Shown: in pieces, positions 28,625-57,348 of the stretch
How the letters are laid out: each line of letters starts with the position of its first letter
How positions within the stretch are numbered: position 1 is the first letter of the stretch
Assembly: GCA_019058275.1 (NCBI GenBank)
Contig: JAHLVW010000066.1
Location: forward strand, 124,001-188,000
DNA: 64,000 bases
Source: Candidatus Heimdallarchaeota archaeon
GTDB lineage: Archaea > Asgardarchaeota > Heimdallarchaeia > JABLTI01
Direction: 5' to 3'
Notes under the pieces: model-generated
What the model saw: only the letters and a program-made list of their open reading frames with translations
The model's database searches: none
What the model was told of the DNA's origin: nothing
Program-made: the position numbers and the translations under genes

Positions 28625-29538
28625 TTACATCGTTTGTTTACTTTTGATAAACTCTTCTACTTCATCCTTTTTCAGCATACCATCTCGAGCATTTGAAAGA
28701 GTAATTTGCAGTGCTGCACAAGCTGCAGCTCTTGTTCCGATGTCTTTTAAATCTAAACCTTCAAGGTAATAGTGAATGAAACCAGTTGCATAGGCTTCAC
28801 CTGCTCCAGTTGTGTCGATTACAGGGACTTTATAACTAGGGATTTCGATTATTTGTCCATCAGCTAATATATATGATCCATTTTCACCCATTGTTATATT
28901 AAAAATATCAACATTTTATTCATTGCTTTTTTTAGTACAACTTTATTAATTTCTGGAGCATTAAATGCTCTTTGAAATCCTAATTGATTCATAAATACAA
29001 TAGAGTAATCAGCTATAGCTTGTAAAATTTGTTCGCTTGATAAAGACATCATTTATCCTCCTAAATCGATGGAAGAGATTATGTTGAGTTTTTTACACAG
29101 CTTAACTACTTTGAGAGCAATCTCTGCATTAACACTTGAGACATGTACTATTTTCACATTATTCAGCAAATTAGTTGTAATTTCTTTGAGTGAAAGCAAT
29201 TCATTTGCTTCTCTATAACCAATCTTTATGGATTGTCCGTTCTTATCAACTAGTATTATAACAAAACCTGTTGGTACATCAACCTCAACAACAACGTTCG
29301 TAGTATCAACGTTTTCTAAAATGAGCGATTCGATTCCTTTCTTGCCATTATGATCATTACCAACATGGTCAAAAAGTGATACATCAGAACCCAATCTTGC
29401 TAATCCTACTGCAAAATTACAAGCACCACCACCAGGAACGATAGAGAGATTAGATACGATTACTTTGTCATCTGGTTTTGGCAAATGTGGCACTGAGCAA
29501 ATAATATCAACGTTAATATTCCCAATTGTAAGAATCAA
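28625..29538 (-). pseudogene. PfkB-family sugar/nucleoside kinase, interrupted by TAA and a frameshift
   Basis: About 303 codons of a ribokinase-family kinase in three pieces. N-terminal part 29053-29538 (GNINVDIICS; PGGGACNFAVGLARLGSDV) ends at an in-frame TAA (29053-29055). The same frame continues at 29052-28894 (MMSLSSEQILQAIADYS, FMNQLGFQRAF) and then runs out. The C-terminal part continues in another frame, with NVDIFNITMGENGS and the catalytic DTTGAGEAYATGF. One extra A near 28912-28920 (AATAAAATG on the gene strand) would restore the frame. The catalytic motif is intact, so decay would be recent. Sequence error or coupled re-initiation are alternatives. Confidence 0.8.
29057..29062 (-). 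promoter_or_regulatory. Strong internal Shine-Dalgarno at the PfkB break
   Basis: AGGAGG on the minus strand sits 4 bases before ATG ATG (29052 downward), which directly follows the in-frame TAA. Its Gly-Gly codons are part of the upstream reading frame. The arrangement would permit termination followed by re-initiation, giving a split kinase, if the downstream frameshift is also resolved. Confidence 0.4.
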
Positions 29539-56368: not shown

Positions 56369-56390
56369 TTTGACAGAGGGTCAAATTACT
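56364..56390. terminator. Bidirectional terminator between Lrp and GTPase genes
   Basis: AGTAATTTGAC-AGAGG-GTCAAATTACT is a perfect 11-bp stem with a 5-nt loop that covers the stop codons of both convergent genes and is followed on the plus strand by TATCTTTTA. Confidence 0.65.
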
Positions 56391-57348
56391 TATCTTTTAT
56401 TATATCAAGAGGATAGTTATCTTCTAGTAATTGCTTCAAGCATTCCTTTTTACTATCAGTAAATATACGTTCAACTTTATCGCTAAGTGTTTTAAGGATT
56501 TGAACAGCTCTTGCTGCTGGATCATTTTCACCAACAATAATACCTATGACGATATTTTCTTTCTTAATAATTATTAGCTGATTTTTGTGAGCTTGTAATA
56601 ATGTTTCAGCTTTAGGATATTGCTCCATTTGACGAATAAATCTACTTAGTTCATACTTTCCTCTTTTAAAAAGCTCAACACGTTTAGCTTGTGTTTTAGG
56701 TTTACCAAGAATTACCGTTTCAATTTCTGTTCCATCGCTATCAAAAATAAAACCACCTAGTATCTTGACATTGGTCAATGGAAGATCTTGATCAGCTGCC
56801 AAGTTATGGGTTAACCAATCCCAGCTCTCAAAAAGGTCTTCACCTGTTAATGCAGAGCATCTCGAGAAATTATACTTTCTTTGTAATCTAATTAGCTCTC
56901 CAAAATCAATAACATCTAAAACATCATCAGAACTTGCGGCATCTTCTAAATCAATCTTATTAGATAAGAACAAAACAGGTGCTTCTTGATTATAACTTAG
57001 AGCATTATTGAACTCTTCTGCAGCAATATTAAAACGCTTTTTATCTGCTGAATCCAAAACAAAGACAAGACCATCTGCGCTTGAGACAAATTTTTCCCAT
57101 AAAGTTTCACGTAGAGGCATTTGTCCTCCTAAATCATAGACAACAAACTCTAATGATCGGTATTTGTAAATCTCTATGTTAATACCAAAAGTAGGTCGTG
57201 TTAAATTGAATTCGGAACGCAATAACCTGTTAATAATTGTAGTTTTTCCTGCTCCATCTAAGCCAACGATCGCTACGGTTTTTTTATTCTCATTAGAATC
57301 ATCTTCTTTTGAATCGCGTCCTTTCATTATCTTCCTAAACAAAGTCAT
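56386..57348 (-). CDS. Arf-like small GTPase with extra C-terminal domain
   Basis: 320 residues. The G domain (about 23-185) carries Arf-type motifs: G1 GLDGAGKTT at 29-37, switch-I threonine in RPTFG at 53, G3 DLGGQ at 72-76 (Arf form rather than Ras DTAGQ), G4 NKID at 130-133 and G5 SAL at 165-167. Residues about 193-320 form an extra alpha/beta domain (VKILGGFIFDSDGTEIETVILG; LIIIKKENIVIGIIVGENDPAARAV) reminiscent of longin or roadblock-type profilin-like folds. No lipidation signal (no Gly2, no C-terminal Cys). Such GTPases are a hallmark of Asgard archaea and relate to eukaryotic membrane traffic proteins. Confidence 0.88.
   Translation of the reverse strand: MTLFRKIMKGRDSKEDDSNENKKTVAIVGLDGAGKTTIINRLLRSEFNLTRPTFGINIEIYKYRSLEFVVYDLGGQMPLRETLWEKFVSSADGLVFVLDSADKKRFNIAAEEFNNALSYNQEAPVLFLSNKIDLEDAASSDDVLDVIDFGELIRLQRKYNFSRCSALTGEDLFESWDWLTHNLAADQDLPLTNVKILGGFIFDSDGTEIETVILGKPKTQAKRVELFKRGKYELSRFIRQMEQYPKAETLLQAHKNQLIIIKKENIVIGIIVGENDPAARAVQILKTLSDKVERIFTDSKKECLKQLLEDNYPLDIIKDK

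What the first reader, a model, noticed from the sequence alone, without database searches (positions are those of the whole stretch)
56386..57348. Arf-like GTPase fused to a longin/roadblock-like domain
The G domain has Arf-specific motifs (GLDGAGKTT, DLGGQ) and a C-terminal domain of about 128 residues whose strand pattern suggests a profilin-like longin or roadblock fold. In eukaryotes such folds regulate Arf/Rab GTPases as separate proteins, so a cis fusion in a prokaryote bears on the origin of membrane-traffic control.
Basis: partly seen in the sequence, partly recalled or inferred. Interest (0 to 1): 0.75.

Follow-up and report, generated by a model that had tools for sequence, protein, structure and literature searches.

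The report
Archaeal Arf GTPase with longin tail
This Asgard (Heimdallarchaeia) gene encodes a eukaryote-like Arf switch protein joined in one chain to a longin-type partner domain; such fusions are already known from Asgard archaea, but relatives of this one occur in a conserved cluster where a switch-competent copy sits beside a copy with a ruined switch, which resembles the paired Rag switches of our own nutrient-sensing machinery.

Summary
The 320-residue ORF 56386-57348(-) is real, conserved in all nine genomes of its genus and under purifying selection. Residues 21-182 are an Arf-family G domain with every nucleotide-binding motif intact (GLDGAGKTT, PTFG, DLGGQ, NKID, SAL). Residues 195-311 fold, in AlphaFold2 (pLDDT 83), as b1-b2-a1-b3-b4-b5-a2-a3, which is longin topology. 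The 50 PDB fold matches shown are longin/roadblock-type chains or complexes containing them; full-length, the best match is RagA.

Eukaryotic Rag GTPases already carry this fold in cis, and Arf-like GTPases fused to longin domains have been reported in Lokiarchaeota since 2016 (five cases) and in MK-D1 (26 GTPases fused to roadblock or longin domains). This is a new member of a known kind.

What I could not find described is the family's anatomy. In two sister families a paralogue 'A' (DLGGH, as in Sar1) is followed by 'B', the same architecture with its G3 motif destroyed, then a longin-like protein 'C': 21 of 23 and 7 of 9 genomes. The window gene is a stand-alone duplicate of A that has Gln. 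My best reading is a GTP switch whose longin domain is a built-in Rag-like dimerisation platform (about 50%). Pairing itself is untested.

The parts
56386..57348 (-). Arf-like GTPase with C-terminal longin-type domain ('W', 320 aa, stop included)
   Evidence: ORF; orthologues in 9 of 9 genus genomes; dN/dS about 0.1
57319..57348 (-). N-terminal segment MTLFRKIMKG (family pattern M-S/T-x-L/F-R/K-R/K-L/I), possible short membrane or regulatory helix
   Evidence: conserved in W, A and f2 homologues; hydrophobic moment of the window copy is not above shuffles, so membrane binding is only a suggestion
56800..57288 (-). Arf-family G domain, residues 21-183
   Evidence: PF00025 1.5e-40; PDB Arf1 matches
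57238..57264 (-). P-loop GLDGAGKTT, residues 29-37
   Evidence: alignment, same in W orthologues
57121..57135 (-). G3/switch II DLGGQ, residues 72-76, with the Gln76 position kept
   Evidence: A paralogues have DLGGH, B and D paralogues have lost the motif
56413..56766 (-). longin-type domain, residues 195-312
   Evidence: AF2 model of residues 186-320; Foldseek hits shown are of longin/roadblock type
56401..56415 (-). conserved C-terminal motif YPLDI, residues 312-316, role unknown
   Evidence: [YFW]P[LI][DE] in W, A, D and f2 homologues, absent in B

Best explanation
A GTP-driven molecular switch of the Arf family whose C-terminal longin domain is a permanent dimerisation and docking platform in cis, working like the G domain plus C-terminal domain of Rag GTPases. 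Shown by sequence: the G domain keeps every residue class needed to bind and hydrolyse GTP. Shown by prediction: the C-terminal domain has the longin fold. Inferred: two longin domains pair, either in a homodimer or with one of the degenerate paralogues (B or D), so that one competent switch is held beside a weak or dead one; GTP hydrolysis changes which longin/roadblock partners or membrane effectors are bound. The window gene (W) would be a genus-specific duplicate of the operon gene A that acquired or retained Gln at the catalytic position.
For: Arf G domain with intact motifs. Longin fold of the C-terminal domain. The full-length model matches RagA, RagC and yeast EGOC chains across both domains, 307-317 alignment columns (overall TM is low, 0.29-0.34, because the domains are oriented differently or poorly placed). 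Paralogues of identical architecture are encoded in tandem as A-B-C in 21 of 23 f4 genomes and 7 of 9 f1 genomes, with 3- and 14-base gaps in f4. B has lost G3 in every copy (EADEE/EAGEE/EASEE in f4, D[LI]G[KEN][DE] in f1) while keeping the P-loop GK[ST]. B's C-terminal domain is homologous to that of the others: E down to 1.3e-8 with a profile built without B. A G-domain tree puts W, A and D together (96/89) and W with f1 A (84/65). An operon pair of Rag-like GTPases in MK-D1 was predicted to form a Gtr1/Gtr2-like heterodimer (PMC10933270).
Against: No dimer was modelled or measured here. The window gene itself stands alone: its neighbours are an AsnC-type regulator and an ABC transporter, in conserved synteny, so its partner is unknown. 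Profile-profile comparison finds no sequence link between this longin domain and the RagA C-terminal domain (only two Rag sequences). The full-length model is poor over the G domain (mean pLDDT 64). The longin domain could instead act on its own G domain.
Confidence: 0.5

Rival explanations
1. The longin domain is a cis regulator: it packs on the switch regions of its own G domain and acts as a built-in GAP or lid (MglB/TRAPP-like logic made covalent), released by a ligand, membrane or partner.
For: MglB roadblock dimers regulate MglA in trans (abstract of PMC11016934), and longin/roadblock domains commonly contact GTPases. The linker between the domains is short, about 11 residues (184-194). 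The conserved PLDI tail could be a latch.
Against: The degenerate B and D paralogues lost their switch motifs but kept the longin domain, which is hard to explain if its job is to regulate hydrolysis of its own switch. No confident interdomain packing in the model.
Confidence: 0.25
2. The protein is a membrane-bound Arf in the eukaryotic sense: the N-terminal segment inserts into the membrane on GTP binding and the longin domain recruits a coat or tether-like effector.
For: Arf-type DLGGQ and following R/W pattern; an N-terminal hydrophobic-basic segment is conserved in W, A and f2 members; the amphipathic character is significant for two f2 members (shuffle p 0.024-0.026).
Against: The window copy's hydrophobic moment is no better than shuffles (p 0.43). 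There is no Gly2 myristoylation site. Asgard proteins tested as GFP fusions did not go to membranes in HeLa cells (PMC10933270).
Confidence: 0.15
3. The G domain is really Rag-like or MglA-like and only looks Arf-like.
For: PF04670 also passes its cut-off (25 bits versus 22); RagA is the best full-length fold match; AU tests do not exclude joining with Rag (p 0.099) or MglA (p 0.054).
Against: Arf scores 139 bits against 25 for Rag. MglA has YTVPGQ where W has YDLGGQ (sequence checked). The genome has separate, better Rag-like genes (120 bits). Nearest non-fused rows in the tree are Arf-like proteins.
Confidence: 0.08

Closest known systems
Lokiarchaeal Arf-like GTPases fused to longin domains (five reported; Dey et al. 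2016, PMC4917890, citing an earlier genome re-examination) and the GTPase-longin/RB architectures of 'Ca. P. syntrophicum' MK-D1 (Tran et al. 2024, PMC10933270)
   Same: Same architecture: Arf-annotated G domain with a longin-type domain in one Asgard polypeptide; MK-D1 also has an operon pair predicted as a Rag-like heterodimer.
   Different: This is a Heimdallarchaeia family. Its domain profile finds strong matches only in families f1, f2 and f4. It includes a conserved asymmetric A-B pair with a G3-less member and a third longin-like protein; I found no description of that.
Rag/Gtr GTPases (RagA-RagC, Gtr1-Gtr2)
   Same: G domain followed by a longin/roadblock-type domain in cis; best full-length fold matches; paired paralogues.
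   Different: G domain is Arf-like (139 versus 25 bits); C-terminal domain has longin topology and no detectable sequence link to the RagA domain; the partner B has lost G3, whereas RagC is a working GTPase (general knowledge).
Arf/Sar1/Arl family, including single-domain Asgard ArfR proteins (PDB 8ouk, 8oum)
   Same: Motifs and sequence of the G domain, 29-36% identity in fold matches. The DLGGH of operon gene A is the motif of human Sar1A.
   Different: The Arf, Sar and ArfR entries matched are single-domain GTPases; none ends in a longin domain.
MglA-MglB of bacteria
   Same: Small GTPase working with a roadblock-fold regulator; the MglA-MglB complex chain 6h5b_B appears among the fold matches of the C-terminal domain.
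   Different: Separate chains; MglA has an atypical G3 (TVPGQ) and is far from W in the tree.

Membership tests
Arf-family GTPase | Match to Pfam PF00025 above cut-off and well above other GTPase families | tested here: met
   139 bits (cut-off 22.3); next best SRPRB 47, Ras 38, Rag 25
Arf-family GTPase | DxGGQ switch II with following R/W pattern, NKxD and SAx motifs | tested here: met
   DLGGQMPLRETLW, NKID, SAL, conserved in orthologues
Arf-family GTPase | G domain groups with Arf/Sar to the exclusion of Rab, Rag and MglA | tested here: inconclusive
   Sits among Arf-like rows in the tree, but deep branches are weak, Rab/Rag long branches fall inside, and AU tests do not exclude Rag or MglA
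Arf-family GTPase | N-terminal myristoylated amphipathic helix | tested here: not met
   No Gly2; hydrophobic moment of residues 1-11 no better than shuffles. Not universal in the family: Sar1 lacks Gly2
Longin domain | b1-b2-a1-b3-b4-b5-a2-a3 topology, no helix before b1 | tested here: met
   DSSP of the AF2 models; topology definition from PMC10933270
Longin domain | Sequence match to a curated longin family | tested here: not met
   No Pfam match for the window domain; only insignificant longin/roadblock matches for relatives (Intu_longin_2 0.14 and Robl_LC7 0.15; MAPKK1_Int 0.011 for an f2 relative)
Roadblock/LC7 domain | Helix before b1 and a single C-terminal helix | tested here: not met
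   No helix at residues 184-195; two helices after b5. Fold search does not separate roadblock from longin
Rag/Gtr GTPase | PF04670 G domain as best family | tested here: not met
   25 bits against 139 for Arf; other genes in this genome are the better Rag-like ones
Rag/Gtr GTPase | Obligate heterodimer through the C-terminal domains | not testable with these tools
   Only single chains can be modelled; the tandem A-B pair is suggestive
MglA-type GTPase | Atypical G3 lacking Asp (TVPGQ) and MglA sequence similarity | tested here: not met
   W has DLGGQ; a phmmer search with MglA itself finds only MglA and weakly a few Arf/Sar/Arl chains

The most novel reading that the evidence does not exclude
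Heimdallarchaeia run a Rag-like heterodimeric switch built from Arf-type parts: a GTPase-competent Arf-longin (A, DLGGH) locked through longin domains to a G3-less pseudo-GTPase Arf-longin (B), with a third longin-like protein (C) from the same operon as regulator. The window gene W and paralogue D are later solo members of the same system. This would mean asymmetric paired GTPases evolved from Arf stock independently of, or before, Rag.
Probability: 0.35. Interest if true: 0.65.

Novelty: new member of a known kind. Interest (0 to 1): 0.4.

Why it matters
Eukaryotic membrane traffic and nutrient sensing rest on small GTPases and on longin/roadblock partners. Asgard archaea, Heimdallarchaeia among them, often join the two in one chain. 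A compact, conserved family with both competent and ruined switches gives a definite set of two- and three-protein complexes that can be expressed and tested to ask whether paired GTPase control predates eukaryotes. The single fused protein is not itself a surprise.

Tried and rejected
(1) Sequence-only searches of the C-terminal domain against PDB and Pfam gave nothing significant; only the fold comparison identified it. (2) NPRL2/GATOR1-type identity of gene C, suggested by its FxxxxGP start, was tested with Pfam NPR2 over the window genome (no match, but no control rang either) and with a PDB profile search (nothing); left as unproven. (3) A common ancestral A-B-C cluster for the whole class was not supported: the C homologues examined in other families (f2, f3, f6, f7) have no A or B next to them. 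(4) A membrane-inserting amphipathic helix in the window copy is not supported by shuffling. (5) My first domain profile contained one B sequence, so its B hits were partly circular; repeated without it, B is still found. (6) A strong phylogenetic verdict on Arf versus Rag versus MglA was not obtained.

Full report
Observation. The ORF at 56386-57348 on the minus strand reads 320 residues from ATG. The genome is a 4.1-Mb MAG in 118 contigs. Its close relatives are deposited as 'Candidatus Heimdallarchaeota'. The first 20 residues are a short basic/hydrophobic start and a spacer, residues 21-182 are an Arf-family G domain (PF00025, 139 bits, 1.5e-40), and residues 184-194 are a linker. The remaining 126 residues have no Pfam match. 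The best PDB sequence relatives are Arf1 chains at about 1e-29. All nine genomes of the genus have an orthologue, with conserved neighbours where read: an AsnC-type regulator on one side, an ABC transporter on the other. Pairwise dN/dS is about 0.1, lower in the G domain (0.05-0.10) than in the C-terminal domain (0.15-0.22). The gene is real and both parts are maintained.

Fold of the C-terminal domain. Only the window protein and five loci from the search for related loci could be given to the structure predictor. The full-length model is modest (mean pLDDT 64), but its C-terminal part is good. Modelled alone, residues 186-320 reach pLDDT 83 and pTM 0.78. The order of elements is strand, strand, helix, strand, strand, strand, helix, helix, with no helix before the first strand. 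By the definitions in Tran et al. 2024 (PMC10933270) that is longin rather than roadblock. Foldseek against PDB gives E-values near 0.001 and TM 0.3-0.57. The 50 matches shown are zeta-COP, AP sigma/mu and other adaptor chains, Vamp7 longin, LAMTOR/Ragulator and EGO subunits, Rag complex chains, Asgard and bacterial roadblocks, an MglA-MglB complex chain, MglC, and dynein or axonemal roadblocks. The full-length model matches RagA first, along both domains, then Arf1 chains and yeast EGOC.

G domain. W carries GLDGAGKTT, PTFG, DLGGQ, NKID and SAL, essentially unchanged among its orthologues. In a maximum-likelihood tree W groups with its paralogues (W+A+D 96/89) and the whole fused family forms one clade with moderate support (83/76), next to Arf-like proteins of the same genome. 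Deep branches are weak. AU tests do not exclude joining the core of the family with Rag (p 0.099) or MglA (p 0.054). The Arf assignment therefore rests on similarity scores and motifs rather than on the tree.

Family and anatomy. A profile of the C-terminal domain finds relatives in 58 of 228 genomes of the phylum, strong ones only in families f1, f2 and f4 of the same class. In f4 (21 of 23 genomes) and f1 (7 of 9) there are two genes in tandem, A then B, followed by a third, C (sequences). In f4 the gaps are 3 and 14 bases in the example read, which suggests one transcript. A has DLGGH, the motif of Sar1, so it need not be dead. B keeps the P-loop but has lost G3 altogether (EADEE, EAGEE or EASEE in f4; D[LI]G[KEN][DE] in f1) and the switch-I threonine pattern. 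A further f1 paralogue, D, has also lost G3 (DLKNS, DLKDH, DLDDH or DIIDS). W, the f2 solo gene and one further f2 copy keep DLGGQ. B's C-terminal domain is homologous to that of the others in a profile search that excluded B (best E 1.3e-8 in 719 proteins), although direct profile-profile scores between A and B are low. C homologues are widespread in the class but were not next to A or B elsewhere.

Mechanism. Shown: a competent-looking Arf switch and a longin-type domain in one chain, with paralogues of the same build, some with ruined switches, kept side by side. Inferred: the longin domain is the pairing and docking surface, as in Rag, and the pair couples one working switch to one silent one. 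I hold this at about 0.5 for W, because W's partner is unknown. The rivals are a cis regulator and a classical membrane-inserting Arf.

Comparison and novelty. The architecture is not new. A 2016 review reports five longin domains fused to lokiarchaeal Arf-like GTPases (PMC4917890). Tran et al. report 26 GTPases with roadblock or longin domains in MK-D1, many of the Rag/Arf class annotated as Arf, with one operon pair predicted as a Rag-like heterodimer (PMC10933270). 'Arf-like GTPase', 'longin domain' and 'NPRL2-like longin domain' are listed Asgard signature families (PMC9834061). The finding is therefore a new member of a known kind. The conserved competent/ruined pair with a third protein is the part I did not find described, in nine searches of a library that lacks most subscription journals.

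Noticed in passing
L084:5039-8075 (G000:C51), L087:6376-10031, L085:6445-9230, L088:6218-9019: Conserved A-B-C gene cluster (Arf-longin with DLGGH, G3-less Arf-longin, longin-like 256-267 aa protein), followed in f1 by a Rab-like 173-175 aa GTPase.
   Followed up: yes
L119:989-2272 (G179:C124): An Asgard ORF joins an N-terminal longin-type domain to an alpha-alpha toroid whose closest PDB relatives are Rab geranylgeranyl transferase beta subunits (1.8e-17; PF00432 5.4e-30). Only the longin half recurs among listed hits in the phylum. By eye it seems to lack the zinc-ligand D-x-C motif; a MAG artefact is possible.
   Followed up: partly
L111:1382-2494, L114:2294-3415, L116:2211-3341: Proteins whose first about 245 residues look like several membrane helices (one weakly GPR180/TMEM145-like in Pfam) end in a related longin-type domain, so a possible receptor-like plus longin architecture in other Asgard families.
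   Followed up: partly
L096:6675-8769, L097:4692-6713, L108, L109: Paralogue D (switch motifs lost) lies just downstream of a protein with one apparent membrane helix and (in the copy read in full) a long proline-rich tail, beside 2-oxoacid:ferredoxin-oxidoreductase-like genes, in all four f1 genomes read. A membrane-tethered pair is possible.
   Followed up: partly
A4 alignment; e.g. L164:4884-5681, L162:4835-5563: Gene C belongs to a class-wide family starting with a VxxFxDxGP...N pattern, with no Pfam or PDB sequence match. It may be the 'NPRL2-like longin' category named in PMC9834061; not proven.
   Followed up: partly
56401-56415: A short C-terminal motif [YFW]P[LI][DE] after the last helix is conserved in W, A, D and f2 members but not in B; role unknown.
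   Followed up: no
L122, L123 (G000:C55:246249-249090): The same genome has a divergently oriented pair of better Rag-like GTPases (120 and 84 bits to PF04670) about 1.8 kb apart.
   Followed up: no
29053-29538: Short (161 aa) PfkB-type sugar kinase ORF, about half the usual length; may be truncated or frameshifted.
   Followed up: no
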